Below the pieces are notes generated by a model that was not told the origin of the DNA, did not search any database, and saw only the letters and a list, made by a program, of their open reading frames with translations. Shown piece by piece: positions 1,234-56,892 of a stretch of 64,000 bases of DNA; positions within the stretch are counted from its first letter, which is position 1; each line of letters opens with the position of its first letter. This stretch comes from Limnomonas spitsbergensis (taxonomy: Eukaryota > Chlorophyta > Chlorophyceae > Chlamydomonadales). Position numbers and translations under genes: made by a program. The stretch spans positions 3,077,501 through 3,141,500 of the forward strand of contig JAYJMM010000099.1 of assembly GCA_037349105.1 (NCBI GenBank). Reading direction: 5' to 3'.

Positions 1234-4200
1234 ATGTATAATCAGAATGGGTATCATGCGTATGGAGCCCATTCTGCGCAAGCAGGCAACTGGTCTCCAG
1301 CGCCCGAACAGAGCAACGCAAGGGCTCCCCCAAACGGCTCCCACTACAACCAATATGGCTCGGTTCAAATGCACGGCCAGATGCATGCGCAAGAACCGAA
1401 CTCGCATCCCAACGGCGGGTTGCAAACAAGCGGCCAGCAGAGGTAAGGAACTTTCCTGTCACTCTGCCCACCCACCCTGTCCGCTTCTACAATCCGTCTG
1501 GATAGAGAAATCGGAATTACAGTCGACGCATTGATCTGGCTGAGACACTGTCCACTGCGACTTGTAGCGCTGCTGGTGGAAGCGCTTGGCCCAGGGCGCA
1601 GGGACATACTCAAGCTTCAATGTCCAATCAGCAGCCAGGAGGAATTAACGTGAACATGCCTAATCAGCAGTTAGGAGCTATGGGCATGAACACGGTTAAT
1701 CAACAAGAAGGAATGGGCTTGAGCATGCCTAATCAGCAGCAAGGTTATATGGGCATGAACATGTCTGACCAGCTGCAAGGAGGTATGGGCATGAACATGC
1801 CTAATCAGCAGCAAGGAGGAACGGGCATGAACATGCCCAATCAACAGCTAGGAGGCATGGGCATGGGCATGAGCAACATGAGTATACTCAAGCAGCAGCA
1901 AAACGGTGTGGGCATGAATGGCATGAGCATGCCGAACCAGCAGCATGGAGTAATGCGCATGGGCAGCATGAATAAGCCAAACCAGCAGCAAGATGGTATG
2001 GGCTCAAACAGCTTCAACTCGCCTAGCCAACAGCAAGGCACAACGAGCATGAATAGCTTCAATTTGCCAAACCAACAGCACAGCGCAATGGGCATGAATT
2101 TACCTAACCAGCAGCACGGCGCAATGGGCATGAATGGCGGCATAAGTCAAGCTCTGCACCTCTCGCAGCTGCGACAAAGCAGCCAGCAGAAGCCCCCCAC
2201 TCTCGCTGGGTCCCAACCCCCGCCACCTAGCTCCTCCCTGCCGCCTCAGTGCCGGATCCAAAAGATCTGGCCTGAGGCTGATCTGCCCGCGCCAGATCCC
2301 TACGCTCCACACCACCCCGGGCAGCTCCAGCAGCTATTGGGGCCTCAAATCCCGCACCAGACACACCAGGGCGGCATCAGCGGACAAGGACAGCGCGCAG
2401 GAGGCGTGTCGCAGCAACAGCTGCAGCAGATTCCCCTGCAACAGCAGCCCCTGCAGCAGCAGCCCCCGCAGCAGCCCCCACAACAGGTGCTCATGCAACA
2501 GCAGCCCCTGCAACAGCCTCCGCAACAGCAGCCTGTTGCACCTATCCAGGGTGGAGGTGGCAATGGCGTCATCGCTGCCATCAAAGCTGAGATCTTGCGG
2601 AAGAGGAAAGTCATGGCTGCTGAAGCTGCGGCAGCGGCAGACGCAGCAGCGGCTGCAGAAGCCGCGGCGGTGGCAGAAGCTGCAGCGGCGGCAGAAGCTG
2701 CGGCGGTGGCAGCGGCTGCCGCGACAGCTGCTGTCAGGCCTGGTGCGACTGCTCCCCTCCCGTACGGTTATCTGCATTCTGAGACGCCCATGATGCCACC
2801 ATCTGGCCCCGATCGACACGAGCTGGGCCATGGGCAGTGGCAGGCGTCAGGCCAAGATCAGCACGCGCTGGGTCAAGGCCAGTGGCTTCCCTCTGGCCCC
2901 AGTCAGCCCACTCCAGGCCATGGGCGATGGCAGGAGTCAGGCCAAGATCAGCAATCGCTGGGCCAGGGCCAGTGGCCAGCTTCTGGCCCCAGTCAGCCCT
3001 CTCAAGGCCAAGGTCTGTGGCAGGCGGCAGGCCAAGATCAGCAAACGCTGGGCCAGGGGCATTGGCCTCAGGACTCTGATGCTGGGCCGCCTCTGTTTGC
3101 GGCGCACCAGGTCCCCGAGCTAGACGGCCCTCCGCCCCTCCCGCCTCTCCCGCCGGAGGCGGCGGCTGCTCCGCCCCCTGATCTACCGCAGCAGCAGCCC
3201 CCGCTGCCCGCCCAGCATTCGGAGCCTCACCCCTCCCAACAGTACCTACTGCCAGGGCAACTGCAGCCGCTGCAGCAGCAGCACCAGGAGTTGATGCAGG
3301 AACTGCAGCAGCAGCAACAGTTGTATCCTAGTCAAGGCGCCCCGGGGATGCCGCAGCAGATGGCTTACCCTCAGCACGCCGGACACCCGATGCAGCAGTA
3401 TGCGCAGCAGCAACAGCAGCAGCAGCAGATGCACTACCAGCAAATGCAACATCAGCAGTACCAAATGCAACAGCAGCAGCACTACATGGGGTGGATGGGC
3501 GGACAGCAGTACAACCCCGCCTTGCTGGCTCAGCAGCAGAGCATGCTCGTGTACCAGCAGCAGCAGCAGCAGCAACAACAGCAGCAATACGCCGCAGCAG
3601 CCACAGCAGCGGCGGCCCTGGCCGCGGCCCACACCGGCGCGGCGACGGAGTTGCCGCGCAACCCCGCCCCTCCGCCCAAGCCGAGCCATCTGGTGGTTGA
3701 TGCGCGGAAGCTTCTCAAGCCTCCTGGCCGTGAGGGCAGGCCCAAGAGGATCTTGGTGGTGCTGAGGGGCCTGCCGGGCAGTGGGAAGAGTCATGCTGGC
3801 CGTGCTATCCGGGAGCTTGAAGCGGAGCTCGGCAGCGCGAGCCAGCCGCCACGCATCCTGTCCCTCGACGAATACTTCATAACGGTGCGGTTCGCCACGT
3901 TTCAGATGTAGTAGGGATCAATGTCTCCCTCTGTACCTGTGTAACCTGTCTGTAAGTGTAACCCTGTCCCCTTCCCCCTCACACATACTTGTAGGAGGTT
4001 GAGAAGGAGGTTGATGAGGATGCTGCATCATACACACACACACATTGCTCACACACACACACACACACACACACACTTACACCACCAACTAACATTATCC
4101 CCCCACACACACATTCACACGTACAGGAGGTTGAGAAGGAGGTTGATGAGGAGGCTGCATCGTCCTCGGCATCTGGCCCCGCTCGCGGCCGGTCCGTGGC

Positions 4201-7200
4201 GGGTGGCAGGAAGAGTCAGGTGATTGCCATGGAGTACGTATACGATGCTGACATGGAAGGTGAGGTGCAGGGGGGTTAGGGCTGAAGTAGGAGCGTACAT
4301 CCAACCACCCATATCAGTTATTGTTAGGGTTGAGGTGGATGGTTATGGAGTAATTATATGATGCTGACATGGAAGGTGAGGTGCAGGGGGGTTAGGGCTG
4401 AAGTAGGAGCGTACATCCAACCACCTATATCAGTTATTGTTAGGGTTGAGGTGGATTGTTATGGAGTAATTATACGATGCTGACATGGAAGGTGAGGTGC
4501 AGGGGGGTTAGGGCTGAAGTAGGAGCGTACATCCAACCACCTATTGTTAGGGTGCACCGTGATTAGGGTTTTTGTGACAGGGACAGTACAAATGCCCCCT
4601 GCATCAGGAATGTGCAGGGTTGAGGGTTAAGTGATTGGAAGTGCTTGTACGGTACTGACATGGCACAGGGTTAGGGATTAGGGCTATTTTATACAGCGTC
4701 AATGGGACAATCCACCCTATGTAAGTTTTGGACGGGATAGGGCTGAAAGTGAAGGGTGTGGGAAGACATATATGATGCTGGCATGGAAGGTGAGGCACAG
4801 GGTTATGTATACTAGGGCTTACGCTGCAGCATAATGCAACCACCTTGTATCAGTTTTGATGGGGTTGAGGGTTGGGTGATTAGGAGACAAGGTGCAGTGC
4901 AAATATTGAATGTGAGGCGCAGGGTCGGGGATGAGGCATTTTTTTGGCAGCGTCGATGCAACCACCCTATATCAGTTTTTGACAAGGCCAGGGACAGGGT
5001 TGAGAGATTGGGAGTCTGTGCACAAGGCAGATAGGTATGGACCTGTTACCCAACATCTCACCCCGACATTTCACCCTACCTCTTACCCAACCTCTCGTCC
5101 ACTCTCTGGTGCCTGCTGTAGTGACGTACCAGCGTAGCCTCTGCCGAGCTGCCTGCAAGGCCCTGGAGGAGGCGCGCTCTCCCTTCCTGGTGGTGGATGC
5201 GCCACACATCAGAGTGGATGACTTCAAGGACCTCTGGGCAACCGCTCAGGTAACTGCACGGGTAACGGAGCTGCCAGGGTAGCTGCATGGGTAACGGAGC
5301 TATTAGGATGTCTGCAGGGTGGACGACTCGAGGGGCATACGGGCAACCGCTCAAGTATGTGGACATCCGCTCAGGAAAAATCTGATCCACGTGGCGTCTA
5401 GTCACACAGCACACACTCCCTCATTTGACATGCCCACCACCCTCTCTCCCCCCATGCACCCATGTCTCAGTGTCTTGTCCCCCCCGACGTTCATCCCGAG
5501 GTGGCAAGGTGTCTCTATCAGGCTGATGTCCAAAAAGAACACGGCATAGACTTGACGCTGTGTCGCCGCCCCTGCACGCTCTCTCTCTTATTTTTAAACG
5601 CACCACGACATCCCTGCCCCCATCAGTAGTATCCCTTGTCCTGCCCCCCCTGCCGCCTGCCATCCATCCAGGGGTGCCACTCAGTCTGGCATCCCAGAAA
5701 CCGCACGATATTGACCCGGAGCTGTGTCACCGCCGCTGCACGCTCCCTCTCTCCTTTCTGGACTCTTCCACCCTAACCCTCAACCCCCAAATCCTCTCTC
5801 CCCTAATCCTCAGTGTCCCGTCCCCTGCCCCCCCATCCCCCGCCCCGCTCCCCCCTGCCCTCCATCCAGAGGTGTCATTACAAGGCTTCTGTCCAAGACG
5901 GCACGATATGGATCCGGTGCTGTGTCACAGAAACAACGCGCACCTCCTTCAATGTGCCCGCCACCGCCTCTTTCCCCCCCCATTTTTAGCATCCCACCCC
6001 CCGCCCTGCTCCCTCCTGCCGCCCATCCAGAGGTGTCATTACGAGGCATCTGTCAAGAAACCGCTCGACAGGCACCCGGAGCTGTGTCACGGACACAACA
6101 TGTGCCCACCACCACCTCCCCCCTCACCATCCTCAATATCCCATCCCCTGCCTCCCCCCCTCACCTCCCCTGGCGTCCATCCAGAGGTGTCACTATGAGT
6201 CTTACGTCCAGAAAACGCACGATACGGATCCGGAGCCGTGTCACCGACACAACATGCTCCTCCTTCAATGTGCCCACCACCGCCTCTTTCCCCCACCATT
6301 CTCAATATCCTATCCCCCACCCTGCTCCCCCCTGCTGTCCATCCAGAGGTGTCACTATGAGGCATACGTCCAGAAACCGCACGATACGGATCCGGAGCTG
6401 TGCCACCGCCGCTGCGTGCATGGTCGCTCCTTGGAGGATGTCAAGCTGGCGGCAGATGCATGGGAGGAGCCACCGGCACTGTACACGTTGCTGGATTTTG
6501 GACCCTTGTTGAGGGCCGCGTCAGGTAGGGAGCGCGTTTAAGCATCATCACAATGTTAAGAAGGGCCGTACATTGATCGGGGGCGGTGGATGTGTGTAAC
6601 CTGGGCAAGGGGGCAGGGAGGAGCCGCCAGCAATGTACATGTTGCTGGATTTCGGGCCCTTGCTATGGGCGGCGTTAGGTAGGAAGCATGTTGATCGGGC
6701 AGGGTGTTTGTATCACCCGGGCAGGGGGTGTGGCAGGAGCCGCAGGCGCTGTGCACTCTGCTGTATATGTTGGGCCCTTGCTGAGAGCGGCGTTGGGTAT
6801 GTGCTTGTTGACCGGGGCAGGGGGGGGGGGCTGTCTCTCGGGCAAGGGGTGAAGGAGGAGCCTCCGGCACTGTGCATGCTTCCAGATTCCGGGCCCTTGT
6901 TGTGGGCGGCGTTGGTTAGGGAGCATTGAATTAGCCAGGGACTGATGCCTGATTGAACCTGACAGGTTTTGAAATGGAGTGTGACGTTGATTGTGGTGAG
7001 GACTGTGACATGGAGTGTGACATGAAGTGTGACATGGAAGTGTTGAGTACAGATTTTACCATTTATGTTACTGTCCGGTGAAGAAACAACAAAGTCCTGT
7101 GCATGGGGAACACTGTGGGCTTGCCACTGCTCAAAAACGAAGTTCGTGTTTGGATGTTTGTGTTTTAGGCTTTGTTTAGCACAAGTTAATCCAGGTACAG

Positions 7201-39836: not shown

Positions 39837-42800
39837 ATGGGTTATGGTGCGCTATGGTTGCTGCTGTTCCTGTATAGATTTTTCTCCCACAGCTCCGCGT
39901 CAGAGAGCATCCGACCTCGGATTTACATTTACGACTTACCCAGCGAGCTCGGCTCACCTTTCGAGACTTTCGCCGGTATGATAGACAAGCGCTTGAAAAA
40001 TAGTGTTCACTACGAGCCCGACCCCGAGAAGGCAGATTACTATTGGATCCCGGGCGGGGCATCATACCCGGAGATGGGGAATAAGACGGGTCTTGATCAT
40101 CTGATCGGTATCCTGGAGCATGTACGATCAGCGCACCCGTGGTGGAACAAAACTTTGGCCCTGGGCCAAACCCGGCATGTGCTTGTGGCGACACAGGACT
40201 GTGGGATCGGAGAAGCGTTCAGGTACCCTGGCATGAGCGAGCCGAACGAGTACGCATCAGGTGCGAGCGAGACCACAGCGCTGATACATTCCCAAAAGCC
40301 ATGATCGACATGCTCGCATCATCAGACATGGGGCCTGGTAGGGGCAATGTGTCCGGTATGAGGCCTTGCAAGGGGCCTTGCATGGGCAGGCCAAACGATT
40401 ACCCAGCAGCTGCAAGCATGACCACAGCAATGTCGACAACACGTTCCCGCAAAGCTCGTTGTTTAACATGGGCCTTGTCATGGGGCGCGCATGGCGTCTC
40501 TGCGCATTTGCGATGGCCAAGGCACGTCTCGTGCCATCACTGCCATGCACCCCTGCCTCACGCATTGACTAGGGGAGTTTCATGCTAGATTTTATCTCTG
40601 TGATTCCTGGGCAGGCTGACACACGGCAGGCCCTATGGGCTCTCAACACCATGATTTCCCCCATGCACAACAGAAAGCTTTCGGCACACTGCCTAGCAAC
40701 CACCACCAGGCCAATGGGGACTCAATCTTGATGGACGTCCGGCTGATAGACCCAGCAGTAGGGCATACTGCTCCTGGCATCCGGGCCATAAGCCACGATG
40801 TACCTGAATTGTAGCGGAAACACACTAAATGAACACTGCCCTACATGCACAGACTACAACCCCGCCAGCGCCACGCGCAACTTCCTCGTCATTCAGTGGA
40901 ATGGTGTCTCTGACGGCGCAGCGGCAGGCTCCGATCGATGCTACGTGTGCTTTCAACCAGGTGTGTGCGGCCCCACGTCGCTAGTCAGAGAGGTAGCTGG
41001 ACCGTAAACCCTATACCCTGCACCTTTATGCTCTGCACCTTACACCTGAACCCTATACTTGGCTGGATGCTGCTGGCTGCACCTGCCTATCAACGCTGTG
41101 CAAGTTGATGGAGGATGATGTAGTAGATGGTGGCCTCGTAGGAGAGGCTCATACCGGCGGGTCAAATCCTCCTGGGGTCGGTCACGGTGTCAGCCACATC
41201 ACACCCAAGGGATCCGCCTTGCAGTTCATACGCCATGCAGTTTAAATGCCGTGCAGTTCATACGCCTTGCAGTTCATACGCCATGCAGTTTAAATGCCGT
41301 GCAGTTCATACGCCTTGCAGTTCATACGCCTTGCAGTTCATACGCCATGCAGTTTTAATGCCTTGCAGTTCAAATGCCATGCAGTTCAAATGCCATGCAG
41401 TTCATATGCCATGCAGTTTAAATGCTATGCACTTCGTCTGCCATGTACTTCATCCCCTCTGTGCCCTGTCCTTCCACTTCATCCCCCATCACACCTCCTC
41501 GCCCTGTCGAACCTCGCCACGTCACACTGTCACACCTCGTCGTCACACATCGCCCTGTCGAGCATTTTTCAATATTTTCGTGCAATTCATGCACCGTGCA
41601 CTCCACACCCCGTCATGATATCTTCGCTACTTCAAATCTTGATCAATGATTGCCCGTGTCTCGTTCCTCTGCTACCAGTCCAAGTTCGGCAGGCCGCCCT
41701 GCGACCGCTGAAGGCTTCTTTGGGACCAAACCTGAACCAGCCTACAACTGGTGGCCAAAGCAGCATGGCTGGCCGCAAATGGGGCCGCCAGCCAGAGGCC
41801 GGAGTGTAGCTGACATGTAGCTGAGAGTCCTGAGACACGAAAAAACAAACTCTGATGATTGCTCGTGCGTGCCTGTAGGGAGGGACATTATGATGCCCAC
41901 GGCTGAGAACGTGTGCGGGCCGCTGTGTGGTTACACGCTACAAGAGCTGAGGGTGGAGTCAACTTGGGCTCCACACCATGTGCAGGTGGGGCTTGCACTG
42001 GCCACTTGTTATCGTGTGTTTTGGCTACAGTTCAGCTACATCACGGTCCAAGGCTAAAGGGGGCCTGGTGCAGCAAGCCCCCTGTTGCTCGATTGGGCCA
42101 CTAGCTGCAGGCCGGTCAAGGTCCCAATCAGCCCAGGGGTGGCCCCCCGGCGGCCTCCTTAAGGCGGTCTGTTCTACATAATAACGAACATAGATGAGGT
42201 CTACAGATTCTTCGTTCAAAAAGTATCGAGTGCCGCATGAAAGAAGCACTTATAAGTACATAATGAGAATGGTTAAGACGTGGATATGGTTTCGGCCCAT
42301 GCTGCGCTGTTCCCTGAACTCATGATATTTACCGAGTTTAAACCCTAAATCCCAATCCCTCGTTTTCTGAGTCTTGAACCCAGGCATTGAAGGTCAGCTT
42401 GAAGGTCTCGTCACTAACCCCCAGGCAACACATCCTAAACCCTGAACCCAAACCACGAGCCTTCAGGAGCTCTGAAACTCTTGGACAGCAAGCGTGGTAT
42501 TCTCATGTTTTCGGCAGCATATTGGGCCTGGACCCTAATCCCTATAACCTATCGGCGGTGGGCTCCCCCTATCACCTGCTGGTCAGGAATTTCTGGCCGG
42601 CAAGCACGTGCTTGCTCAAATGCTGTAAGTGGTTGCGTTTACTTTGTTACACCAACAAAATCATTGTCTTTGGAGGCGACGAGCGCCTGAACCCACAACC
42701 TGACGCACTTGGCCCTGAACTCTAGCCTTAGCGGTCTCGGCGCTCGCCTGCTCAGGAAGCTGTGGATCGCAAACGCGACAAGACTATGTTCTTTGGAGGC

Positions 42801-45171
42801 AGCATGGGCCCGGACCCAAAGCCCGACGATTCGACCGGCCGAGGCGGAATCTATTGGCAGTACGCTAACGACACCCGCTACCTGATCGCGGCCAAGGGGA
42901 TCTACCCGCACCACGTCAAGTTCATCGACGCGATGCTGTCGTCCGACTTCTGCTACTCGCCGCTGGGCGCGCACGGCGGCGACACAGGTGCTGCCGGATC
43001 TAGATCTGGATCTGCGTCAGGAGGAGGACCTTCTCTCACTGTCTCTCAGTGGTACCGTTTTATTTTCTGTTCGGTTTGGTTGCAGCTGAGCCACACACAA
43101 CTGCCTACAGACGAGGGGGTAAAAAACAACGACCGGTCGCCAAGGCACACGCCCCTGGGCAGCCGGTTTTCGGTGGGTCCCTATTTGCCCCCAGTTGTGG
43201 CTGCCCGATAGAGGTCCATGTTACTTGCCAGTTGCCACCTTGCCACAGTTCATGCCTGGTGCAAGCCAGGAATCATCCCACGGTATGCTCAGCTCGACCT
43301 CCGAACTCTAAACCCTAAACCACAACCCTAAACCCCAACCCTAAACCCCTTAACGCATGTGTTTATTTCCGGAAGCTAACCTCTGCCCCCCTCCTACCCC
43401 CCCCCTCCCTCATCAGACCGATACGTTGCCGGGCTCCTGTTTGGCTGCATCCCAGTCATGCTTAACTCCATCGTTCTGTATGGAGCCCTGACGTCGCACG
43501 CGCTCCCATTTGAAGAGGTGCTGGACTGGAGCACGTTTGGCACGCTGGCGGACACCAACGATTTGAAGGACCTGGACCGGCAGCTGCAGTGCCTGAAGCC
43601 GCAAGTGAGGCTGCAGCAGGGGAGGTGGGGAGCTGGGATGTGTGGGCGGAAAGTGGTAGGAGGGCGGAAAGGGGTGGGAGGGATGGACGCTTGTGATTTG
43701 AAGGACCTGGACCGGCAGCTGCAGTGCCTGAAGCCGCAAGTGAGGCTGCAGCAGGGGAGGTGGGGAGCTGGGATGTGTGGGCGGAAAGTGGTAGGATGGC
43801 GGAAAGGGGTGGGAGGGATGGACGCTTGTGATTTGAAGGGCCTTGATCGGAAACTGTAGTGCCTGAAGCCGCAAGTGAGGCTGCAGCAGGGGAGGTGGGG
43901 AGCTGGGATGTGTGGGCGGAAAGTGGTAGGAGGGCGGAAAGGGGTGGGAGGGATGGACGCTTGTGATTTGAAGGACCTTGATCGGAAACTGTAGTGCCTG
44001 ATGCCGCAAGTGAGGCTGCAGCAGGGGAGGTGGGGAGCTGGGATGTGTGGGCGGAAAGTGGTAGGAGGGCGGAAAGGGGTGGGAGGGATGGACGCTTGTG
44101 ATTTGAAGGGCCTTGATCGGCAGCTACAATCCCTGATGCTGCAAGTGAGGCTGCAGCAAGGGAGGTGGGTTGGCTGACACCCTTATCTTTCAATGGTAAC
44201 GGCGCGGATGTGGCTACGGCCCCAAGCTGCGTTGTTTCCTTAACCTCCACGCCCTAATAGGGCGTAGCTTTCCTTCTTCCTTATCCCCTAACCCGCATGT
44301 GTGCCCTTCAGTTGGGCCAGCTGAGGTCTGCTGTGAGAGATGTCTGGCCATCATTTCTGTGGACATCTGTGTACCTTGCTCACCACGTAAGTCACCATAT
44401 TTTGCTCCGGTGTGCCAGATTCATGCTTTAAGCTGTCCTATCTATACTTTTGTGCGTACTTCTGTGAAGGACCCAGAAGGATGCACAAAAGGGCCCTAAG
44501 GTATAACATCATTAACTTGTGTTTGTGCCAAACTTACCTGGGGGCGCCTTGCTATCCTTTTCTTCCTCTTGTGCCTTCTCCCGTGACTCTCCTAGCTGAT
44601 TTTTTGCTTGCTGAAGTGGCCGCGCTTCATTTCAGCATGGCCCAGAGGTGTACTGTCATTAACCTGGGGGAGCCGCCGAGTGGCCACCATTGGGCCAATC
44701 GAGACCTAGCCTTGACACTTGACAGGCGTACTTATGGGCAGTGGCCTGACAGACGCCTTATGGGCAGTGGCCCGGGGATGCCCCCACGCCCAGATGCCGT
44801 AGGGTAGCGGAATTGTGGCTGGAGCATGCACAATTAGGTGGTGCTGTTCATTGGGCGCCCACATAACCGCAAATAACCACCTTACAAAAGGGGGGTGGCA
44901 CCCGCCAAGGCGCCACCCCCCTTTTGTAAGCCCATCCGTTCTCATGACCTCCCCTAAACTCCCATTCAAAACAATCGCTGTGCAGAGTTCATATCTCGGG
45001 GAGGACGGGTCCAACGATGCGTTCGCGACACTCATGCGAGTGCTGGCGTCTCGTATCCCACAAGGGTTTACGCCGTCGGTAGATACCAAGGCCCGGATGG
45101 CGCACCGTAACTTCCCTTGCAGGGAGGACAAATCGCTCAACAATATTCTGTGGGCGGATGTCTCATTGTAG
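39837..45171 (+). CDS. GT47 exostosin-like glycosyltransferase
   Basis: Six exons join in frame: 39837-40260, 40853-40960, 41879-41985, 42756-42987, 43417-43604, 44986-45171 (414 residues). An N-terminal hydrophobic segment (about residues 4-14) is a likely type II signal anchor. Exostosin-family signatures follow in order: RIYIYDLPSELG, EADYYW-like EKADYYWIPGG, WWNKT, CFQPGRDIMMPTAEN, a TMFFGG strand, SSDFCYSPLGAHGGDTDRY and GLLFGCIPVMLNS, then LPFEEVLDW. This fits a Golgi inverting glycosyltransferase of cell-wall or glycoprotein glycan synthesis. Donor and acceptor sugars cannot be told from sequence. The start at 39837 is preferred because it leads directly into the anchor. An upstream codon at 39801 (TTG) is non-AUG, and a CAG at 39813 could be a 5' UTR acceptor. 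Introns 3 and 5 carry copies of their junctions. Confidence 0.87.
41205..41450 (+). repeat. 16-bp GCAGTTCATACGCC-type minisatellite
   Basis: About 14 units resembling CCATGCAGTTCAAATG or CCTTGCAGTTCATACG lie in intron 2 of the GT47 gene. No link to a splice junction is evident. Confidence 0.85.
42435..42755 (+). repeat. Acceptor-side copies of GT47 exon 4
   Basis: Two degenerate copies precede the exon at 42756. The one at about 42465-42550 has AGGAGCTCTGAAACT, GGACAGCAAGCG, ATGTTTTCGGCAGCATATTGGGCC and GGACCC. The one at about 42640-42710 has CAAAATCATTGTCTTTGGAGGCG and GAACCCACAACC.GACG. They match the exon start GGATCGCAAACGCGACAAGA, CTATGTTCTTTGGAGGCAGC. Confidence 0.75.
43561..44175 (+). 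repeat. 135-bp tandem repeat carrying GT47 exon 5 end and donor
   Basis: Five units start at 43561, 43696, 43831, 43966 and 44101, exactly 135 bases apart. The first 44 bases of unit one (ATTTGAAGGACCTGGACCGG to CCGCAA) are the real end of exon 5, and GTGAGG is its donor at 43605. All five units retain a GCAA/GTGAGG or equivalent donor. Because 135 is divisible by three, a 262-codon minus-strand frame stays open through the array. It is an artefact. Confidence 0.95.
44881..44930. other. Perfect 19-bp hairpin in GT47 intron 5
   Basis: CTTACAAAAGGGGGGTGGC (44881-44899) and its exact reverse complement (44912-44930) flank a 12-base loop, 55 bases before the last exon acceptor. It could bring a branch region and the acceptor together, or be a MITE end remnant. 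Confidence 0.85.
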
Positions 45172-47200: not shown

Positions 47201-47229
47201 CAGCTTCCGCCAGCTTCTAGCCACAGCTT

Positions 47230-47856
47230 GAGCATGTCAGCTGAGTTCCCGTACAGAGGCGATGATGCCAAGCCCTGGCCACTTTGCGATGACAACCCCT
47301 GAGAGTTGGAGGATCTTCAACAAGAATATGGACCACCAGTAGCTGGGGATGCGCCGACGGTGTGCAAGGTGCATGGCGGTGGGAAGATAACGAAGTTACC
47401 AGTTATGCAGTTGCACGTCGGAGCGCACATCGTGCTGCGCCAATGTGGGGCAGCCTGTAGCTTGGAGCCAAGTGGTGCTGAGGCGTGGCATTGTGTGTGA
47501 CGACAGGACATCAGGCATGTGCAAAACGGACTTGAGCAAAGGCTCTACCAGCAGCACGCTAGCAGTCGAGTCCTGCTGCCCCCTGAAGTACAAGATGTCA
47601 TACGCAGCTGCTGAGAGGGGTTCTACCACCAATACTTGCACCGACAGAACAGAGGCTTGCACCATCTGCAGGAGCATCGTGGGTGCCATCCGCCCTAATG
47701 TGTGGAGTTCCTAGATCACATGGAGTCAGCCCACCCTGGAGCTGACGAAGGCAGATGTGAAGAGTATGCCATCAGCGCTGAGGAGGTTTAGGGGGGTGGG
47801 TGGGCAAGGAGCCCCCCAAGAAGCAGAAGACCAAGCTTCTGAAGCAGCACGCTTAA
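47230..47856 (+). pseudogene. Frameshifted coding relic with zinc-knuckle-like motif
   Basis: Several frames piece together a decayed protein. CTDRTEACTICRS ends in NVWSS at a stop (47712-47714). The next frame continues LDHMESAHPGADEG and EYAISAEEV. A final frame gives a lysine-rich KEPPKKQKTK tail before TAA at 47854. Cys-x2-Cys, Trp, then His-Met..His recalls a C2H2-type finger found in some transposon-linked proteins. At least one frameshift and internal stops (about 47300) make it a pseudogene. Family is not established. Confidence 0.3.
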
Positions 47857-48601
47857 GTTAGATGCCACTCCTGTATGAGTCCTCTCGTTTTTGGAGCCTC
47901 GTGGTCTCCAGCGAGGACAGGTAGTTGGCAGGTGGTACCGTAGCTAGAGCAATGGTATATTATATTTTTCATCGCTTGACATTTGTACCAGCTACATTTA
48001 TCGACACCATTATAAGCGCACTGCTCAGCTGATTGAAATCGACCCCGCTCCCTTCCTTAAATTATGTTTTTCGACTGAGAAATGAAGGTTTACTAGGTTC
48101 TGGAGGCGGGGCGGGGGGTAGCCAGTGATCTATTCACATTTTTTCATCATGGGGTGTTGGATTTTTCTGCCCCCCCTTTATAAATATATAGAAATGTAAA
48201 CTGACGTTTGAATCCCAGGTTTTGTGATACCGCCATATATGCATTCCATATCCATGATCCCGTTCAGAGCGCACACCATTCCGTCTTCAGCAAATTCCCC
48301 AATCTGGTGTCCACACACACACACACGAGGCAGCTTTCCAAGCCAGACCGAGTCCACAGTTATTGCAATCCTGCCAAACCGGATTCAAATTCAAACAGCC
48401 TTTGTGCAGGGGACCAACACAAGCCCATACTGGCCCCCAATATCTACATTTGAAAAGCGTCGCTGGTCGTTTCTTTCGCTGTTCGTGACGCCGCACTCAT
48501 ATCCCCACTAGTTTAGCCCCCTGATGCCCCCCTTTCGATAGAATGTCCACCGCAAGCGCACATCCTCCCCCCTGCTTTCATCAGCAAGAGGCTGTGCATG
48601 C
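47857..48601. other. 3' flank of CCT7 (minus strand)
   Basis: This AT-richer stretch includes TTTATAAATATATAG near 48178 and short C- or G-runs. It should contain the CCT7 3' UTR and polyadenylation site. I cannot place the cleavage site with confidence. Confidence 0.4.
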
Positions 48602-51600
48602 TCATCGCCTCATGCCCCTGCCCCCCCTGCCTCCCCTGCCCCTGCCGCGCCCGCCCGCCGGTGCGCCTTGATCTGGCGCCTCGCTCTTGGGGTTGCGAAC
48701 CGTCTCGTCCACGCTGAGGATGAGGCAGGCCGCCTCTGTTGCGCTGGCGATTGCATTCAGCTTCACCAGCGACGGCTCCCACACAAATGCGTTGTACGTG
48801 TCCACGACGCCGCCAGTGTTCACATCCACACCGTAGTTCTGGAAAGGCAGGAAACGATGGAGGGGTCAGGCGACCCAAGGTCAGTTTTCCAGAACAAAGC
48901 TACCTATCAGCTGCAAACCAGCTCTCCACCGGAGGCCCCGGGTGTGGCCAGCCATGCTGCTTGGACCGCCCGCCGGTCGTAGGCCAATCCAGGGTTGGTC
49001 TGACTTGGGGGGCCTCGGATGGCCACGGGGCGGCCGGCTAATGGTGGCCATGTAGTACTAACAAGAAATTCATAGCAAATCTGGAACGAATCGAGAGAAC
49101 AAGAGCTCGACAATTATGCAAGACCTCCCGCCTCACCCAGCCGGGCAATATTCACGCTCTTGCCTTGAAAAATTGCTGTAGGGTCTACCCTTAACCCTAT
49201 TTTTCACCTCTGTAGGGTCTACACTAAACCCTTTTAAAACCCTGATCAGACTTAAGCCTCTTGGCCCCGCGTAACCCGCGCACCTTCCCAGATCCGTCCG
49301 CTTGTGCATGCTTCTGTCTCAGCTTGCTCAACACGTCCGTCGCGTCAAAGCCAGCGTTGTTGCACAGTTGGCGGGGGATGACCTCCAGCGCCTTAGCAAA
49401 CGCCTTGATGAACAGTTGCGCCTTGCTGGTGTGCGTTAGGGCTAGCTCGCGCAGGGCCTTGCTGACCTAGGGGGTGCAGGTGGCAGCAAAACGGGGCAGA
49501 GGCTGAAAACACTCTGGCGAGGCGCCTAGCTGGTGTGTGTTAGGGCGAGCTCGCGCAGGGCCTTGCTGACCTAGGGGATACAGGCGGCAGCAAAACTGGG
49601 CAGAGGCTGAAAGATATTTGAGGGCAAGGCGCCTTACTGACCTAAGGGGTACAGGCGACAGCAAAACGGGGCATGCGCTAAAAGATACTCGAGGGCAAGG
49701 GGCCTTGCTGGTGTGGGCCAGGTCGCGCATCGCCGTGCTGACCTAGAGGAGCTAAGGGGGCAAACCTTGAACACTTGATCGCCTTGAGCACCCACCTCCA
49801 TCTCGATTGCCCCGCCACCTGGCACGACCTCTGAGTGCTTCAGCGCACGGCGCACGATCATAATCGCGTCATGCAGCGAGCGTTCTGCCTCGTCGATGAA
49901 TTGATCGCTGCCTCCCCGCAACACAATGGTCGCGGTGCGCGCGTTGGGGCAGCCCATCAGCATGTTGTACCGCTCAGCACCAACCTACGTGCAGTACATG
50001 CCTGTACGGATCAGGGTCGAGGGTACATGCACAATGGTCGAGGTGCGCGCGTTGGGGCAGCCCATCAGCATGTTGTACCGCTCAGCGTCCACCTGCAAGC
50101 AGTACATGTTGTTATCGCAACCACCAAATGGCCTTTTTTCGATAGGGCCAGGCAGAGCGGACCGGAAGGGGACCAGCAACCAAACCGAAACTGACCCACG
50201 CCAACCTACAGAAAAAATGGACCAAACAGAAGAGACAAAGGAATAACCAGCGGCAAGAAACCAGACCACAGACAGCAGGACCAGGAGCCAAAGTCAATGC
50301 CAGCCAAATTCAAACACCGGAGCCAGAATCAGATACCGGTAAGTTGAGAGGGTGAGTAGCGCAGTGAATCAGCCAATGCAAACCTCAGCTGCAACAACAA
50401 CAACAACAATAAAGGCTGCGGTTTGTGAACCAAGGCAGCCCATCAGCATGTAGTCTTGCGACCACCTGTTGTGACCACCTGTGCGAAGCACTTTCGAGTC
50501 CCGACTCTCCGGTGGTTTTATTTCCTCTGGCATTTGTTTGCAACACTGCCATGCAAGATTTCCACTGTGCAGAGATGTCAGAGAGTCCCTAGATACAATC
50601 TCAGCAGAGCGTGCCTTGACTGAGTCTCTAGAGGGCGCTACGCTTCAGCTACATCACGGCGGCGCTTCAGCTACAGCCAAGGCGGCCTGGGGCGCCCAGT
50701 GGTGGCTGCCAAGCAGCCTGTCCCAGGTGCGCTGGTGCCTACTGTGGTGCCCGACATGCTCCCTTGCAGCGTCCCCCTCCCAGCCCACCTGCTTCTCCTC
50801 GAATCTCGTACATGTCCCAAGGAAGGTCTTGGCCGACTGGGCCGTCAAGCCATTGACGGTGGTCTGCACCCGGGCGCCCGTGGCCTTGGACACACGTTCC
50901 AAGTCAGGGAGCTCGACCTAGCGCGCAGCGCAGGCAGAGGATTTTATGTACCAATGCTCGACACAGGCAGGATATTATGTACAAGTGCACGACACAGGCA
51001 GGATGTAATGTACAAATGCACGAAACGGGAAGGAAGCAGAAAATTGTCGAGGTGTGGAACACCGGTACTGGTACAGATGCCTGACATCAGGGCAAGATGC
51101 CGGATACTAATTTCATTCAAATTATAATTGCAGGAAACTGGTAAGATGTTGAAGATGTTTTGTGGGCGAAGGTGTACAACATCGGCAGGGAGCAGAAATG
51201 TACCGGTGATCAAACCGCTGCCTGGACATGAATCTAAATACAGCACATAATGTCGAGCATGTACGGCATATAGTGGTGGCAGATATTCTTTAGTATGGCA
51301 TATAGTGTATTCTTTTGTACAACAGATACTCTTTTGTTACCAGGGGGATCACAAAGCCAAGGTGGCTGATGCACATGGTCCCATCAGCGATTGAAAAAAC
51401 CTTACTAGGGGGCAGAGACTGAGAAAGTGCATGCAAATCTCCTACCGCATCCTATGCAGGACAGCATGCACATCTCCTATCACACACCCCATGCAAGCAT
51501 GGAAGTCAGTAGGAGCATGCAAGAATGGGTGTGGTAGAAGCAAGCAAGCATGGGCGTGTGGTAGAGGCATGCAGCCCCGTGCCTCCGTGTATGCCGACAC

Positions 51601-54600
51601 TCACCCTGCCCGCACAGAACACATTCCGGTCGGCAAAGTACTGCGTGGCGAGGTCGCCAATAGCAAGCCGCGAGAGCACAATGCTTGCGCCCGACTCAAC
51701 GCACTTTGCCAGCTTCTCATAGATGATGTTCCACTCTGCGTCCACAATCGACTGGTATTGCGCTGGGTCGTCCAGTCGGATCTGCGGGCACAGGGTTATT
51801 CAGAGTTTGGGATTGGCCAGCTTCTTATAGACGATGTTTCACTCTGCGTCCACATTGGACTGGTCCGGCCCTGGATCACCCAGGCAGATCTACACAGAAA
51901 AAGGCGGTACGAGATCCAGGGTGCAGCATTTCGAACCCTGACCACCCGGTGCTTTGTGGTTCACAAACCTCGACGTACACAGAACGCAGCGGTCATTAAT
52001 CCAGGTTTCACAGATCGTAAACCCTGATTTACACGGAATCAGGGGTTTGAGAATCATGGTGTAGGTTTCATCGGCCCTACAGAACATACAAAACCTCTAG
52101 GGCCAGTCCAAGCCATGTCCAAGCCTGTTCACTTCCATATCCATAGCTTTATACATGCATTGTAGACCCACGCCTCGCCTCCACTCAACTGCTCACTCCC
52201 CCCCCTTGATAACCCAACCTCACACTGCGCACCTCTGCCATCTTTTCGTCCCCCTTCCTCTTCACCCCTCCCTTCACCTTTATCCTCCCCACCCTTGCTG
52301 TCTCTCCCTTCACCTCCCCTCCCTCCCTTCCCCACTCCTTCCCATCCTTTCCACCTTTCTCCCTCTCACTCCATTCCCATCTTTCTCCCCTCCCCCCCCC
52401 CCCCCATCCTCCCCACTTACGCTCCTTCTCTCCTCCCCTCCCTTCCCCCCTCCCTTCCTTCCCACCTCCTCTCTCCTCTCCTACCCCTCCTCCCCCCCCT
52501 ATTTCCTCCCCTCCCCTCCCCCTTCCTCCCCACCTCCACCCCATCTCCCCACCACCAACCTCTGCGTTCTCCCTCTCCGACTTGATCTCCAGCTCCATGT
52601 TGAGGAGCAGCACCTTGGGGTTATCAAAGCTCTTGGGCTGCTGCTCAAAGCCGGCATAGCTGAACGTCTTTTTAAACGCGACGCCGTCCACCAGAAAGGA
52701 GTCGCGGAGGCCACCACCCTGTGTAATAAAACAAAAAGGTGCACATGATTGAAATCGGCTATCGTGGGAAGTCAAAGCTCTTGGGCTGCTGTGCTGTGGT
52801 GTAGGCTTCGCAATGCCACTAGAGCATCTGGCGCCAGGTGCTGTAGTGGCATTGCGAAGCCTACACCACAACATGCTGCTTAAAGCCATCAGATCTGGCA
52901 CCTCCCCCTCACCTGAACCTTTTTCATCCCGACCAGTTTCAGGTCCAGGGAGACGGGATCCAGCTTGGACACCGCGTCCACGACCATCTGGGCGAAAAAC
53001 TCCTTTTCGCCGCTCACCTGCAAACAGCGACACATTGTTTAGAGTGGTGGCCAAGTTGGGGAAGGGTGTTGCAGAGCAGGAGAATGACAGGGGGTAGGGT
53101 TTAGGGGGGGGGGGCCTAATTGGAGGTCGGACAGGTAAGAGGGCGTTGCAGGGCAGGGGAATAATAGGGGACAGGGTATAGGGGGGGGTGACTATGTGGA
53201 GGATTGGCAGGGTTGAAGGGTGTTGCATAGCAGGGTAATTCCAGGGGGTAGGGTCGATTTCTGGGGGGGCTCAGTGGAGGATTGGCAGGGTTGAAGGGTC
53301 CTTACAATCCACGCCCCAGGATGTACTAATTTATTTATGAAGGGTGTTGCAGAGCAGGGGAATGGCAGTAGACTGGGGTTCAGATCGCACATGCGACCCA
53401 TTGTAGATTTTATCCAGCGGCCTCAACAGCGTACCATCAAAAGTGAGCAGTGCACATCCAGAGACATACAGAATTGCCAAAATTCATGTTACTGTACTTG
53501 CTGGTGTTCACCAGTGGCGATAATTTAAATTGGACATAATTCGAGTGCACGTGCCATGAATTGCATGCATCACATGTCATACATGCATCACATGTCATAC
53601 ATGCATCACATGTCATACATGCATCAAATGTCATACATGCATCACTTTGAATGCATGCATCAATTTCTAACCATGCATCGTCCTGCAGACCTCAGACTCC
53701 CAGCTTGTCATCAGGTCTCCCCTTTCAGGACGGCTCAGATCTCCAAGGTGAACAATAATTTAGCTGTATGGAAAATCACCAGGGGCATGACCACGTGTAC
53801 ACAAGTGCTTGCTAATGTGTGCTTCGGTTGCCATTCTGCTACATGACAGAGGCGGCGGGGGGCTTGGTGCAGCAGGCTCTGCGGCATAGGCCGCCGGCCA
53901 ATGTTCTGTCCCCGATGACCCGGTAGTGGCCGCATAGCACGTGGCCTAAAGAAGTGGTTTGGTGCATGTGTATGCTTGTATGCAGGCATCGTCTTGCAGA
54001 TCTCAGACTCCCAGCTTGTCATCAGGCCTCCCCTTTCAGGGCGGCTCAGATCTCCATGGTGAACAATAATTTAGCTGTATGGAAAATCATCAAGGGCATG
54101 ACCACGTGTGCATGTCTGCTTGCTCTAGCGTGCTTTGGTTGCAATTTTGCTACATCACAGACAGAGGCGGCGGGGGGGCTTGGGGCAGCAGGCTCTTCCA
54201 TATGGGCCACCGGCCTATGTTGTGTCCCCCATTGACCCAGCAGTGGCTGCATAGCAGCTGGTCTAAGGAAATGGTTTGGTGCATGTGTATGCTTGTATGC
54301 AGGCATCGTCTCGCAGACCTCAGACTCCCAGCTTGTCATCAGGCCTCCCCTTTCAGGGCGGCTCAGATCTCCAAGGTGAACACTAATTTAGCTGTATGGA
54401 AAATCATCATGGGTGTGGGCATGCTGCATGCGTGTGAATTCATGCGAGGCGTCCATGCCACCCAGGGTTTAGAACGGTGCACACCCAATGCCCTGCTGAA
54501 CGCTCAGTCGCGTGGGGCTGGCAGGCGACGAGCAACCTCAACTCCAGCTGCCACGCACAGTCAGGACCATGACGCAGCCATGACACCCCCATGGCAGTTG

Positions 54601-56892
54601 TCAGTGCACTTCAAGTCGTCAGCTACCCTATAGCTCTGCCCTGTCCCTACGGCCTCACTTGCTTAGGGTTTCTGCCTTACTTGTTTCTGCCCCAGTTTCT
54701 GCCTCAGATTTAAGAGGTTTCTGCCCCAGGTTTTGAGGTTCCGGGGCCTCGGTTTTTGCCTCACTAGTTTTGGTTTCAGGTGTCAACCCTTGCCCATAGT
54801 CAAGTCTTGACCCCTTCCCCATAGCTTGCGTCTCAAACTAGCTTTGAATTGAGCATGGTAATGGCACACTTCTTCAGCATATCCTGGTTCTCCACATCGA
54901 TAGTAAGGGGTTTTGAGGGCCCCAGGGTATCAACCTGATCCAGCGGCGCGTCTCTCACCAGCTTCGAGTTGAGCGTGGTCATGGCACACTTCTTCAGCAT
55001 ATCCTTCTTCTCCTCATCGCTCGTGCCTGCCAGGCTGATGGACAACTCCTTGATCTTGGCAATGGCTAGCGATGACGCCTGTCGGTAGGCTTTGATGATA
55101 TTCTGTTGGGGAAAGCAAGAGCGGTGAAGAGTTCAAGGTTTTCGTGGAGCAGAGTTACAGTACCAGGCGGATGGGCAGCTCTTTGATCTTGGCAAAGGCT
55201 AGCGGCCAGGCCTGGCAATATGCCTTGATGATGTTATGGGTGGCGCCGCAAGAAGGCTGAGGGGGTGCAAAACAACAACTGTTAGTAAGAGACCGGGTTC
55301 AACACAACAAGGAAGCGACCAGGATCAAAAGGGAGGAAGGGACAATTCTAAAATCGACAACAAAACCGTGAAGAGGCTGGGGAAAGCAGCAACAAGGTCG
55401 TTGAGTGAGACTGGGTTATCAATAACAACAAGTTTGAAGAAGAGACAGGGTACAGACAACGGCGGGCTTAGAAGGAGACTAGGGCAATACAACAACAAGA
55501 CCAATTGAGATACTGGGTTCAAAAAAAAAAGGCAAAGGCAAGATTCAGCCTTGGATCGAGGTGAGTGAAAGATGGATCTGCTGCCTGCAATACCATTCAG
55601 GCAATGCTTCTGAATTCAAAATGTGTACTAGTACTTACTTTTCTGACAGTGTCAAAAAGTGTGAACGTGGGTACGCAGCTTTGACATGCCGACATATTTT
55701 GGCCAGTGGCTAGGCTGAAATCGCCAATCCAACATACTTTCGACTCGCCCTACTGCACGCCATTGGCTACCACTCACCTAATACAGTAATACTACATTCA
55801 AGATGATTGTTCAAGCTTATTTGTCCCAGCTCTCAACGACACAACAAGCGTCGGGTGATGGTACCTAAGGTACAACATCTGGCGCAACAAGGTACCCCAG
55901 GACGCCCCATCAGAGCTTGTCCTTTACAACAGCACACCCCAGTCTTAGTGTGATTTGCTGGTGGTTGTGGTGTGGTTTGGAATAGGGCTGCCAGTGTTTC
56001 TGATGATGATCACGGTGACAGTTGCTCTCTTCTGGCACTCAACATTCTCCTCACATGCGTATGAATACATATGCCTGTGATCTTCAACAACTCGACCTGA
56101 ACCCTAATTTTGAACCGAGGCGCCCAGTCACTCACCCTAGGGTGCCCCCCCTCCTCAATAAAAGGTTTGGCTTCCTTAAGAAATTCTCCTGCCAAGATGA
56201 CAACCGACGTAGTGCCATCTCCAACCTGTGGGGCGAGGGGCAGCAGTATGTGCGACGCAGGATCTCTGACCAGTCACAACCATCAAAATCGCTAGGCAGA
56301 GCGATGATAAGAAGGAGCAATGTGTAGTGGCCTGGAGAATGATCACCCACCATAGTGCATTGCAACGAAAATGGCTAGGCTACTTGTTCGTTATGACAGC
56401 ATGGTCAAACAAGCAAGACTGAACTGTCATGAAGATGTCATGCATGCATGCATGCCATTCGTAACACCCGTCCCACACACCTCGGCATCCTGGGACAAAG
56501 AGACATCTACTAAGCTTTTGGCTGCAGGGTGTACAATCTCCAAAAGCTTCATGATCGTGGCACCATCGTTGGATATTGTGACTTTCCCCTGCAAGCAAAA
56601 TCATGTCCGACATCTATCAAGATCTTGGTGCGGGATGGTTATCAAGATAGACGCAGTGCGCTTATTGAGAAGCACGTTCGCCTTGTCAAAGACCACGTCA
56701 TTTGTAATTCTCCTTTCGGAAGGTTCTGACCTGGCTGTTGTGAATAAGCTTGTCCATACCCCTTGGCCCCAGCGTTGTCCGCACGGCATCAGCGACTGCC
56801 ATACATGCATTGATGTTGCTGACGAGCTGAGGGGTCCCTTGCGAAGTATCTGTCCCTTCTTTCAGGAGAATGATTTGGGGTTGCTGCGCCAT
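48602..56892 (-). CDS. CCT7: T-complex protein 1 subunit eta (CCT7)
   Basis: Eleven minus-strand exons, in transcript order: 56892-56731, 56588-56481, 56225-56136, 55102-54959, 53017-52913, 52718-52560, 51781-51605, 50917-50789, 49984-49796, 49466-49284, 48838-48602 (560 residues). Every exon is a multiple of three, so all ten introns are phase 0. Eta-type CCT hallmarks are plain: [12 protein letters not shown] and [12 protein letters not shown] at the N-terminus, [27 protein letters not shown] (ATP/Mg site), [54 protein letters not shown] and a Gly/Arg-rich tail near residue 550, as in animal and plant CCT7. The product is one of eight subunits of the cytosolic chaperonin that folds actin and tubulin. 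An upstream in-frame ATG at 56904 adds four residues. The one used gives the conserved start. Confidence 0.95.
49467..49760 (-). repeat. Acceptor-side copies of CCT7 exon 10
   Basis: On the plus strand, GCGCAGGGCCTTGCTGACCTAG is the exon 10 start plus acceptor (exon ends at 49466). It recurs at about 49553-49575 almost unchanged, and in diverged form near 49632-49650 and 49705-49745. Between copies is a shared spacer, GGTACAGGCGGCAGCAAAAC. Each copy keeps a CTAG acceptor on the minus strand. Confidence 0.88.
50030..50100 (-). repeat. Second copy of CCT7 exon 9 start with intact acceptor
   Basis: ACAATGGTCG.GGTGCGCGCGT, TGGGGCAGCCCATCAGCATG and TTGTACCGCTCAGC are repeated almost perfectly upstream of exon 9. 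On the minus strand the copy begins after TGCTTGCAG as Val-Asp-Ala-Glu-Arg-Tyr, while the exon used here begins Val-Gly-Ala-Glu-Arg-Tyr. The copy runs for about 55 bases and then diverges without an obvious donor. Confidence 0.88.
51800..51900 (-). repeat. Acceptor-side copy of CCT7 exon 7
   Basis: GGCCAGCTTCTTATAGACGA, TGTTTCACTCTGCGTCCACA, TTGGACTGGT and GGATCACCCAGGCAGATCTA duplicate the exon 7 start and its acceptor side. Substitutions place an in-frame stop where the exon has Trp-Asn. Confidence 0.85.
52795..52870. other. 76-bp near-perfect palindrome in CCT7 intron 5
   Basis: Outer arms 52795-52821 and 52844-52870 are exact 27-base reverse complements (TGTGGTGTAGGCTTCGCAAT then GCCACTA). 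The inner 22 bases continue the pairing with one G/G mismatch and one wobble, so the arms meet with almost no loop. The hairpin begins just inside a partial copy of exon 6 sequence (AAGCTCTTGGGCTGCTG at 52775-52791). Confidence 0.9.
53555..53660 (+). repeat. 18-bp ATGCATCACATGTCATAC repeat
   Basis: Five units of 18 bases lie in CCT7 intron 4, then degrade into ATGCATGCATCAATTTC. Confidence 0.9.
53670..54420 (+). repeat. Tandem repeat of about 315 bp, 2.4 copies, containing a family B dispersed repeat
   Basis: Units start near 53675, 53986 and 54303 and share GCAGACCTCAGACTCCCAGC, TTGTCATCAGG and AACAATAATTTAGCTGTATGG. Two units also contain a GGCGGCGGGGGGCTTGG..CAGCAGGCTC block flanked by TGCTACAT, which matches other GTAGC/GGCC repeats (family B) at 10480, 14290, 17990, 25200, 41690, 42030, 44670 and 63330. 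Confidence 0.85.
54836..55250 (-). repeat. CCT7 exon 4 flanked on both sides by copies of its ends
   Basis: Exon 4 is 54959-55102. Donor side: 54840-54905 repeats its last 60 bases (AGCTT.GA.TTGAGC.TGGT, ATGGCACACTTCTTCAGCAT, ATCCT). Acceptor side: 55160-55240 repeats its first 75 bases (ATCTTGGCAA.GGCTAGCG, GCCTTGATGATGTT). The acceptor-side copy would encode NIIKAY-like residues but lacks the AG in place. Confidence 0.88.
55103..56135. other. CCT7 intron 3, remainder
   Basis: Beyond the exon 4 copy, 55260-55520 holds purine-rich AACAACA/GGAAG sequence with loosely repeated GAGACTGGGTT and GAGACCGGGTTC units. The rest up to 56135 shows no repeat or gene I can support. Confidence 0.5.

What the first reader, a model, noticed from the sequence alone, without database searches (positions are those of the whole stretch)
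3990..56230. Splice-junction-seeded tandem duplication across four unrelated genes
In the YLPM1-like, secreted-protein, GT47 and CCT7 genes, the exon-intron junction itself is copied in tandem into the adjoining intron at about 20 junctions. The copied unit always includes 20-100 exon bases plus the working GT or AG, and the copies lie only on the intron side next to the source. Both strands and both junction types are affected. Random minisatellites would not be expected to coincide with exon edges so often. The pattern suggests that splice-site-spanning units are preferentially duplicated, or preferentially tolerated because an extra splice site at the edge lets the intron grow while one exon copy stays in use. 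Tandem duplication of AGGT-containing exon sequence is an established idea for intron creation. Here the same process would lengthen existing introns repeatedly.
Basis: seen in the sequence. Interest (0 to 1): 0.9.

Follow-up and report, generated by a model that had tools for sequence, protein, structure and literature searches.

The report
Spare splice-site copies beside exons
In this green-alga genome about one in six of the exon-intron junctions tested, all placed by protein homology, has a duplicated copy of itself lying inside the neighbouring intron, and these copies likely come from ordinary tandem duplication that survives longer next to exons, which would give a natural test of how cells choose between near-identical splice sites.

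Summary
The copies are real. In three modelled genes of the window, 9 of 38 junctions carry a clear intron-side copy, plus three weaker ones. Outside the window, 46 of 273 junctions do, in 12 of 14 chaperonin genes; none of 206 foreign-sequence controls reached that level. Spacing is about 110 bp.

Counted on both sides, junctions are not more duplicated than intron interiors. Against one-sided positions of the same introns, junction copies are about twofold in excess: 29/182 against 15.0 expected, window genes left out. The whole excess lies in diverged copies (25 against 10.5); near-identical ones show none (4 against 4.6). Copied GT/AG decays like its neighbours (33/43 intact); offsets ignore reading frame.

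Best reading: position-blind tandem duplication, with better retention and perhaps renewal at junctions because the exon half cannot be lost. Simulated position-blind birth gives only 1.2-1.4-fold against 2.4-fold seen, so a modest birth bias at junctions is not excluded.

Assembly statistics match the snow alga Limnomonas spitsbergensis (PMC11228838), which was annotated with full-length transcripts; those would show which copies are spliced. The planned larger gene sample was not obtained: the genome search stayed busy.

The parts
54959..55102 (-). CCT7 exon 4, copied outwards at both of its edges
   Evidence: spliced alignment
54828..54899 (-). copy of the exon-4 donor (exon end plus GT), offset 119
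   Evidence: self-BLAST pair with 54948-55019, 86%; 10 edits in 45
55163..55238 (-). older copy of the exon-4 acceptor region, offset 133; the C39 paralogue has copies at offsets 131, 373 and 506
   Evidence: 79%; 16 edits; C39 copies
51813..51891 (-). weak copy of the exon-7 acceptor region (exon 51605-51781), offset 108
   Evidence: self-BLAST 81% with 51705-51783
50030..50108 (-). copy of the exon-9 acceptor (exon 49796-49984), offset 108; same period in the C39 paralogue
49467..49750 (-). array of exon-10 acceptor copies (exon 49284-49466), copy junctions at 49569, 49640 and 49738
43560..44169 (+). GT47 exon-5 donor array: source exon end (exon 43417-43604) plus tandem copies of 135 bp, about 4.5 units in all
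   Evidence: no such copy at that donor in the C39 paralogue
40261..40430 (+). stretch that holds the copy of the GT47 exon-1 donor (exon end 40260), copy junction near 40409
   Evidence: 11 edits in 45, offset 149
3979..4029 (+). copy of the YLPM1-like exon-2 acceptor (exon 4127-4274), offset 128
   Evidence: self-BLAST 88%; 7 edits
4229..4544 (+). YLPM1-like exon-2 donor with tandem copies of 116 bp (a further copy near 4796)
5250..5360 (+). stretch that holds a weak copy of the YLPM1-like exon-3 donor, offset 99
   Evidence: 15 edits in 45
5617..6346 (+). acceptor-side copies of YLPM1-like exon 4 (exon 6347-6524) at offsets 162, 316, 477 and 675
6525..6926 (+). donor-side copies of YLPM1-like exon 4 at offsets 153, 270 and 388

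Best explanation
About one in six exon-intron junctions tested in this alga has a tandem copy of itself inside the intron, spaced about 110 bp, and these copies likely arise from a position-blind duplication process that runs through introns and simply is not stopped at junctions. A unit that spans a junction leaves the protein unchanged as long as the outermost donor or acceptor is still used, so it would be tolerated like any intron-internal duplication, and only intron-side copies would survive. Of such a pair one half is exon, which cannot be deleted and changes slowly, so junction pairs would stay recognisable longer than pairs lying wholly in introns. Inferred addition: the conserved exon half would let copies keep recombining with the exon, so some junction arrays are renewed rather than lost. 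Shown: the copies, their frequency, one-sidedness, spacing, the decay of copied GT/AG at about the rate of neighbouring bases, and an excess confined to diverged copies. Inferred: equal birth rate, longer retention, renewal, and which copy is spliced.
For: Two-sided junction coverage is not above intron-interior coverage (33/294 against 449/3309). The near-identical class shows no junction excess (6 against 5.4 of 205; 4 against 4.6 of 182 without window genes), while the diverged class does (27 against 12.0; 25 against 10.5). Copied splice dinucleotides are intact in 33 of 43 aligned copies (0.77), about what the pair identity of 0.86-0.88 predicts (0.74-0.78), and offsets modulo 3 are 18/13/18. 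Averaged over 38 paralogous introns, intron identity between paralogues is 0.27-0.34 beyond 20 bp from the junction, while copies are 0.86-0.93 identical to their source there, so copies are mostly much younger than the split (CCT7 pair dS 0.84-1.29). Renewal: junction duplications occur at the same junction in both paralogues more often than expected (9 of 76 against 4.7 with shuffling inside intron-length classes, P 0.007). The CCT7 exon-9 acceptor copy has the same 108-bp period in both paralogues, yet copy and exon share lineage-specific bases. A simulated equilibrium intron with uniform duplication comes close to the interior rates.
Against: The simulation of uniform birth with a constrained exon gives only 1.2-1.4-fold for diverged copies, against 2.4-fold seen (3.0-fold with a 400-bp search) without window genes. 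A 1.5-2-fold birth bias at junctions fits those counts better by 1.4-3.9 log units against the main uniform setting (0.7-2.7 against the setting with the strongest exon constraint), and by 0.2-1.7 with one gene per paralogue pair against the main setting. Retention beyond the simulated amount, and renewal, were not simulated. The excess reaches 60-100 bp into the intron, where exon constraint alone should not act. Exon and intron parts of the copies are almost equally diverged (0.88 and 0.86), although slower change of the exon half should make the exon part clearly more alike. The youngest class is small (4 to 6 cases). Leftover intron similarity between paralogues, exon-derived parts masked, exceeds the null maximum in 2 of 8 introns with shared copies but also in 6 of 30 without, 5 of these in the L038/L039 pair, so it does not single out renewed arrays.
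Confidence: 0.48

Rival explanations
1. Junction-seeded birth: units that span a splice junction are duplicated more often than other intron stretches, for instance because of co-transcriptional structures or nicks at exon edges.
For: Twofold excess at junctions in the same introns; a simulated 1.5-2-fold birth bias fits the summed counts better than uniform birth; the same junction is hit in both paralogues more often than expected, in 6 of 8 introns without leftover shared intron sequence above the null maximum.
Against: Near-identical copies show no excess: 4 seen without window genes where a 1.5-2-fold bias predicts about 8-10 (250-bp search), or 5 where it predicts about 7-8 (400-bp search), a weak contrast; two-sided coverage at junctions is not above intron interior.
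Confidence: 0.27
2. Functional retention: inner copies serve as spare or regulatory splice sites, for example to make unproductive isoforms, and are kept by selection.
For: The CCT7 exon-9 copy sits at the same place and period in both paralogues and, read from its inner AG, is open for 35 codons and ends in the TAG of the real acceptor, in both; [quoted passage not shown]
Against: Copied GT/AG is no better kept than other positions of the copies (donor 0.91, acceptor 0.85; other bins 0.74-0.93); no frame preference in offsets; differences between the two CCT7 exon-9 copies show no codon-like pattern (by eye).
Confidence: 0.1
3. Coincidence plus survivorship only: random tandem arrays in a repeat-rich genome overlap junctions, and the apparent excess is entirely the slower decay of exon-anchored pairs.
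For: Tandem duplication is frequent along the window and the C39 stretch, also where no gene was modelled; uniform simulation predicts 1.2-1.4-fold excess; with one gene per pair and no window genes the counts are small (17 against 7.8 diverged).
Against: Diverged-class excess of 2.4-3-fold exceeds the simulated 1.2-1.4-fold.
Confidence: 0.12
4. Artefact: assembly errors, or the copies are real exons of other transcripts that the models miss.
For: None found; no RNA could be examined here.
Against: The assembly that matches rests on PacBio reads of 33-kb L50 plus Illumina polishing (PMC11228838), longer than these arrays; the spliced window CCT7 is 92% identical to its best hit, and five relatives show no insert at its ten exon joins, apart from a one-residue length difference near the first join in two; copies are found in 12 of 14 genes outside the window.
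Confidence: 0.03

Closest known systems
Intron gain by tandem duplication of a segment crossing an intron-exon boundary (potato RdRp; PMC4974935, abstract, introduction and start of methods read)
   Same: A tandem duplication whose unit spans an intron-exon boundary and carries working splice signals into the copy.
   Different: There one event made a new intron; here no intron is gained, existing introns only get longer, and it is seen at about one tested junction in six.
Tandem duplication of AGGT-containing exon segments as a source of introns (Rogers 1989 and Hellsten 2011, as described in PMC4974935; originals not read)
   Same: Duplication supplies splice sites without changing the protein.
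   Different: Source there is exon only; here the unit is exon plus intron and the old splice site would stay in use.
Tandem repeats enriched near intron ends in Chlamydomonas and Volvox (PMC3887541, passages and one methods section read)
   Same: Green algae; repeats more frequent towards intron ends; introns richest in repeats.
   Different: That survey used units of 1-50 bp, and the passages I saw do not ask whether the exon edge is part of the unit; here the spacing is about 110 bp and exon sequence is included.
Tandem duplication by repair of adjacent single-strand breaks in plants (recalled, not read; the search did not list a primary paper on it)
   Same: Would give direct tandem units of tens to hundreds of bases.
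   Different: No evidence here on the repair pathway.

Membership tests
Intron gain by tandem duplication | unit carries splice signals and spans or abuts a junction | tested here: met
   49 of 293 junctions with exon-anchored copies; 33 of 43 aligned copies keep GT/AG
Intron gain by tandem duplication | a new intron appears at a position without one in relatives | tested here: not met
   for CCT7 only: both paralogues share all 10 intron positions and the duplications lie inside existing introns
Green-algal intron-end tandem repeats (PMC3887541) | repeat density higher towards intron ends | tested here: inconclusive
   one-sided profile of diverged copies peaks at junctions, but two-sided coverage is flat across the intron
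Green-algal intron-end tandem repeats (PMC3887541) | short units (1-50 bp) | tested here: not met
   median offset 112-121 bp
Introner-like elements | many similar introns of one dispersed family | tested here: inconclusive
   junction probes matched one random foreign stretch each in only 1 of 294 cases; the whole genome was not searched for them
Mutually exclusive or alternative exons | copies carry a full exon with splice sites on both sides and keep the frame | tested here: not met
   copies hold one exon edge, median 30 exon bases; offsets ignore frame
Mutually exclusive or alternative exons | copies appear in transcripts | not testable with these tools
   no transcripts of this alga were available

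The most novel reading that the evidence does not exclude
Exon edges act as templates that cannot be lost and that keep re-seeding ~110-bp tandem units into the neighbouring intron, so that introns in this lineage grow from their splice sites outwards and carry self-renewing decoy splice sites that the spliceosome must reject by recognising exons rather than introns.
Probability: 0.23. Interest if true: 0.78.

Novelty: new variant of a known kind. Interest (0 to 1): 0.52.

Why it matters
If roughly one junction in six carries a decoy of about 87% mean identity within some 500 bases, this alga is a natural experiment on splice-site choice: the protein needs the outermost donor and acceptor, that is the longest intron and the shortest exon, the opposite of what simple pairing across the intron would pick. 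It also gives a measurable route by which introns lengthen, and a quantitative way to separate biased birth from biased survival of duplications. The matching species has a published annotation built with full-length transcripts, so it can be tested directly.

Tried and rejected
Rejected: 'junctions are hot' in its simple form (two-sided coverage not raised); 'no excess' (the one-sided same-intron control shows twofold); decoys kept as functional sites; frame-preserving selection.

Led nowhere: enlarging the gene sample. The genome search was answered twice and reported the machine busy. Random intergenic stretches were not obtained. The 'secreted-protein' gene could not be modelled. Dropped before counts: L049 (a second CCT1-like copy, 37% identity to the reference against 63% for L047); junctions whose flanking exon is shorter than 24 or 30 bases; the last GT47 micro-exon of the window, an artefact of the array itself, and introns without room for the search; introns under 150 bp. 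One search was spoiled by self-alignment and is superseded. One search failed on an import name and was rerun. The short first run of the equilibrium simulation (diverged ratios 0.98-1.54) is superseded. A cruder matched control with large arrays included gave 6, 15 and 16 junction copies in the three classes against 20.2, 3.7 and 9.4; its near-identical class rises to 0.18 in positions with over 700 bp of intron room, probably because of one large array, which is why I turned to the same-intron control. In one search the L044 amino-acid-21 row (112 of 207 'own' sites) is not a homologous alignment; without it the tally is 95 own, 25 other, 11 neither.

Full report
WHAT THE WINDOW IS. The window lies in G000, contig C99:3077501-3141500, a genome of 260,226,709 bases in 124 contigs. 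CCT7 from the window is closest to green algae; named hits include Dunaliella, Volvox, Gonium and Chlamydomonas at 82-84%. Size and contig number match the Arctic snow alga Limnomonas spitsbergensis (260,248,090 bp, 124 contigs, 54.15% GC; window 53.3%) (PMC11228838: outline, passages, first part of the results and the data section read). That identity is inferred from the statistics, not shown by a record.

GENE MODELS. I wrote a spliced protein-to-genome aligner. With references recalled from memory it gave 15 usable genes: CCT1-CCT6 and CCT8, two CCT7, and six HSP60-like, with 150 introns of median 448 bp. The two CCT7 genes (window, and C39:6055491-6062468) have the same ten intron positions and identical exon lengths, proteins that read through cleanly, dN 0.013-0.019 and dS 0.84-1.29. 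Five related CCT7 proteins have no insert at the ten joins, apart from a one-residue difference near the first join in two. GT47 (PF03016) was modelled in the window and in C39 by reciprocal alignment. The YLPM1-like P-loop gene (AAA_33) was modelled from its own open frames, so its exon edges rest on less. All splice sites are placed by homology and GT/AG; no RNA of this alga was available.

THE OBSERVATION. 36-base probes centred on junctions have a copy with at most 9 edits within 700 bp at 18 of 147 donors and 19 of 147 acceptors; all 37 copies lie on the intron side; probes against foreign target sequence gave 1 of 294. With 45-base probes anchored in the exon, 49 of 293 junctions have a copy at 14 edits or fewer; 46 of the 273 outside the window do, in 12 of 14 genes (CCT1 and CCT8 have none). 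Foreign comparisons (206) never fell below 16 edits. In the window's three modelled genes 9 of 38 junctions qualify and three more are weaker. The exon part has median 30 bases.

IS IT MORE THAN RANDOM PLACEMENT? Counted on both sides, junctions are no more duplicated than intron interiors: 33 of 294 against 449 of 3309 (non-short-period, at most 8 edits), and 31 of 877 in exon interiors. But a junction can only keep copies on one side, so the fair control is one-sided. Against one-sided interior positions of the same introns (250-bp search, 17 models), junctions show 33 of 205 against 17.3 expected; without the window's genes 29 of 182 against 15.0; with one gene per paralogue pair and no window genes 21 of 137 against 12.2 (P 0.001); the first two were reached in 0 of 4000 draws. 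The excess is all in diverged copies (4-9 edits: 27 against 12.0; without the window 25 against 10.5). Near-identical copies show none (6 against 5.4; without the window 4 against 4.6). In the profile without window genes the diverged class peaks at the junction (donors 0.11-0.15, acceptors 0.18-0.19) and falls to about 0.02-0.07 by 150 bp into the intron; the young class is flat at about 0.015-0.05 inside introns. An earlier control matched on intron room but not on intron identity gave the same picture for diverged copies (31 against 13.1) and fewer near-identical ones than expected (6 against 20.2), the latter probably driven by one large array.

WHAT THE COPIES DO. Of 43 aligned copies 33 keep the splice dinucleotide, as the overall identity predicts; offsets modulo 3 are 18/13/18. 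By position, GT in donor copies is 0.91 identical and AG in acceptor copies 0.85, inside the range of the other bins (0.74-0.93). So there is no sign that decoys are kept or erased by selection. Averaged over 38 introns, identity between paralogues drops to 0.27-0.34 beyond 20 bp, so copies with 0.86-0.93 identity there are mostly far younger than the split. At sites where paralogous exons differ, copies follow their own exon 95 times, the other 25 and neither 11 (leaving out one non-homologous row).

RETENTION OR SEEDING. An equilibrium simulation with uniform duplication, deletions and a constrained exon comes close to the interior rates and predicts 1.2-1.3-fold (young) and 1.2-1.4-fold (diverged) at junctions. 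The observed young ratio (0.9-1.1) is compatible; the diverged one (2.4-fold without window genes, 3.0-fold with a 400-bp search) is higher. A 1.5-2-fold birth bias fits the summed counts better (1.4-3.9 log units against the main setting, 0.7-2.7 against the strongest exon constraint; 0.2-1.7 with one gene per pair against the main setting) but predicts somewhat more young copies than seen (about 7-10 against 4-5). Longer retention at junctions than the simulation allows would fit both classes; I did not simulate it. A candidate is renewal: the same junction carries copies in both paralogues in 9 of 76 cases against 4.7 expected when shuffled within intron-length classes (P 0.007). At the CCT7 exon-9 acceptor the 108-bp period is the same in both paralogues, the stretch between copy and exon still aligns, and yet copy and exon share lineage-specific bases. 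A wider test was not conclusive: with exon-derived parts masked, intron similarity between paralogues exceeds the null maximum of 42 in 2 of 8 introns with shared copies (scores 55 and 59, right at the acceptor) but also in 6 of 30 introns without, 5 of them in the L038/L039 pair. Renewal therefore remains an inference. An earlier, cruder simulation gave 1.2-1.6-fold young and 1.4-1.8-fold diverged; its introns shrank without replacement, so one search is preferred.

THE GENERAL BACKGROUND. Near copies within 700 bp are frequent along the window and the C39 stretch, from 0 to 0.44 of positions per 4-5-kb block, also where no gene was modelled. GT47 shows how young an array can be: 135-bp units at 96% matches, with no copy at that donor in the C39 paralogue.

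RELATION TO WHAT IS KNOWN. A boundary-spanning tandem duplication that created an intron is described in potato (PMC4974935), and short tandem repeats are enriched towards intron ends in Chlamydomonas and Volvox (units of 1-50 bp; PMC3887541). I saw no report of exon-edge copies at this frequency in the listings of searches, which cover an open-licence library only.

LIMITS. The sample is 15-17 genes, mostly chaperonins; paralogues are not independent; the young class has 4-6 cases; simulation parameters for deletions are assumed; the fourth gene of the finding is untested.

I recounted the junctions per gene and read the exon-9 inner frame by script. For these I lowered the best explanation from 0.50 to 0.48 and the novel case from 0.25 to 0.23, and raised seeding from 0.25 to 0.27.

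Noticed in passing
window 39849-56874 and G000:C39:6055000-6074000: CCT7 and GT47 lie side by side in two places of the genome (CCT7 dS 0.84-1.29), but convergent in the window and in the same direction in C39: an old duplication followed by rearrangement. HSP60-like genes also come in pairs.
   Followed up: partly
window 49985-50092 and the same place in L032: If the inner CCT7 exon-9 acceptor were used, the frame stays open for 35 codons and then meets a stop formed by the TAG of the real acceptor, in both paralogues: a possible unproductive-splicing switch.
   Followed up: partly
window 25383-26186: A 99% pure (TCTGCT)n array of 134 copies.
   Followed up: no
window 26434-26615, 28145-28215, 34163-34213, 43304-43349: CCCTAAA-like repeats inside the window, resembling plant-type telomere repeats (motif recalled).
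   Followed up: no
window 11949-12128, 37546-37753, 39175-39318, 59152-59235; C39 stretch near 23620-23890: A dispersed repeat of roughly 60-190 bp in both orientations, 82-92% DNA identity between places, possibly a mobile element.
   Followed up: no
window 61569-63305 and 32156-33329: Two long high-identity tandem arrays, about 92-bp and 35-bp units, outside the modelled genes.
   Followed up: no
L049 (G000:C102:974500-983000): A second CCT1-like copy that aligns at only 37% identity with poor splice sites, likely a decaying duplicate.
   Followed up: no
L040 (G000:C37:663800-673799), CCT2 intron 9: A 2.5-kb intron with a tandem unit of about 41 bp, 35 copies found within the 1.5 kb searched, beginning next to the donor.
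   Followed up: no
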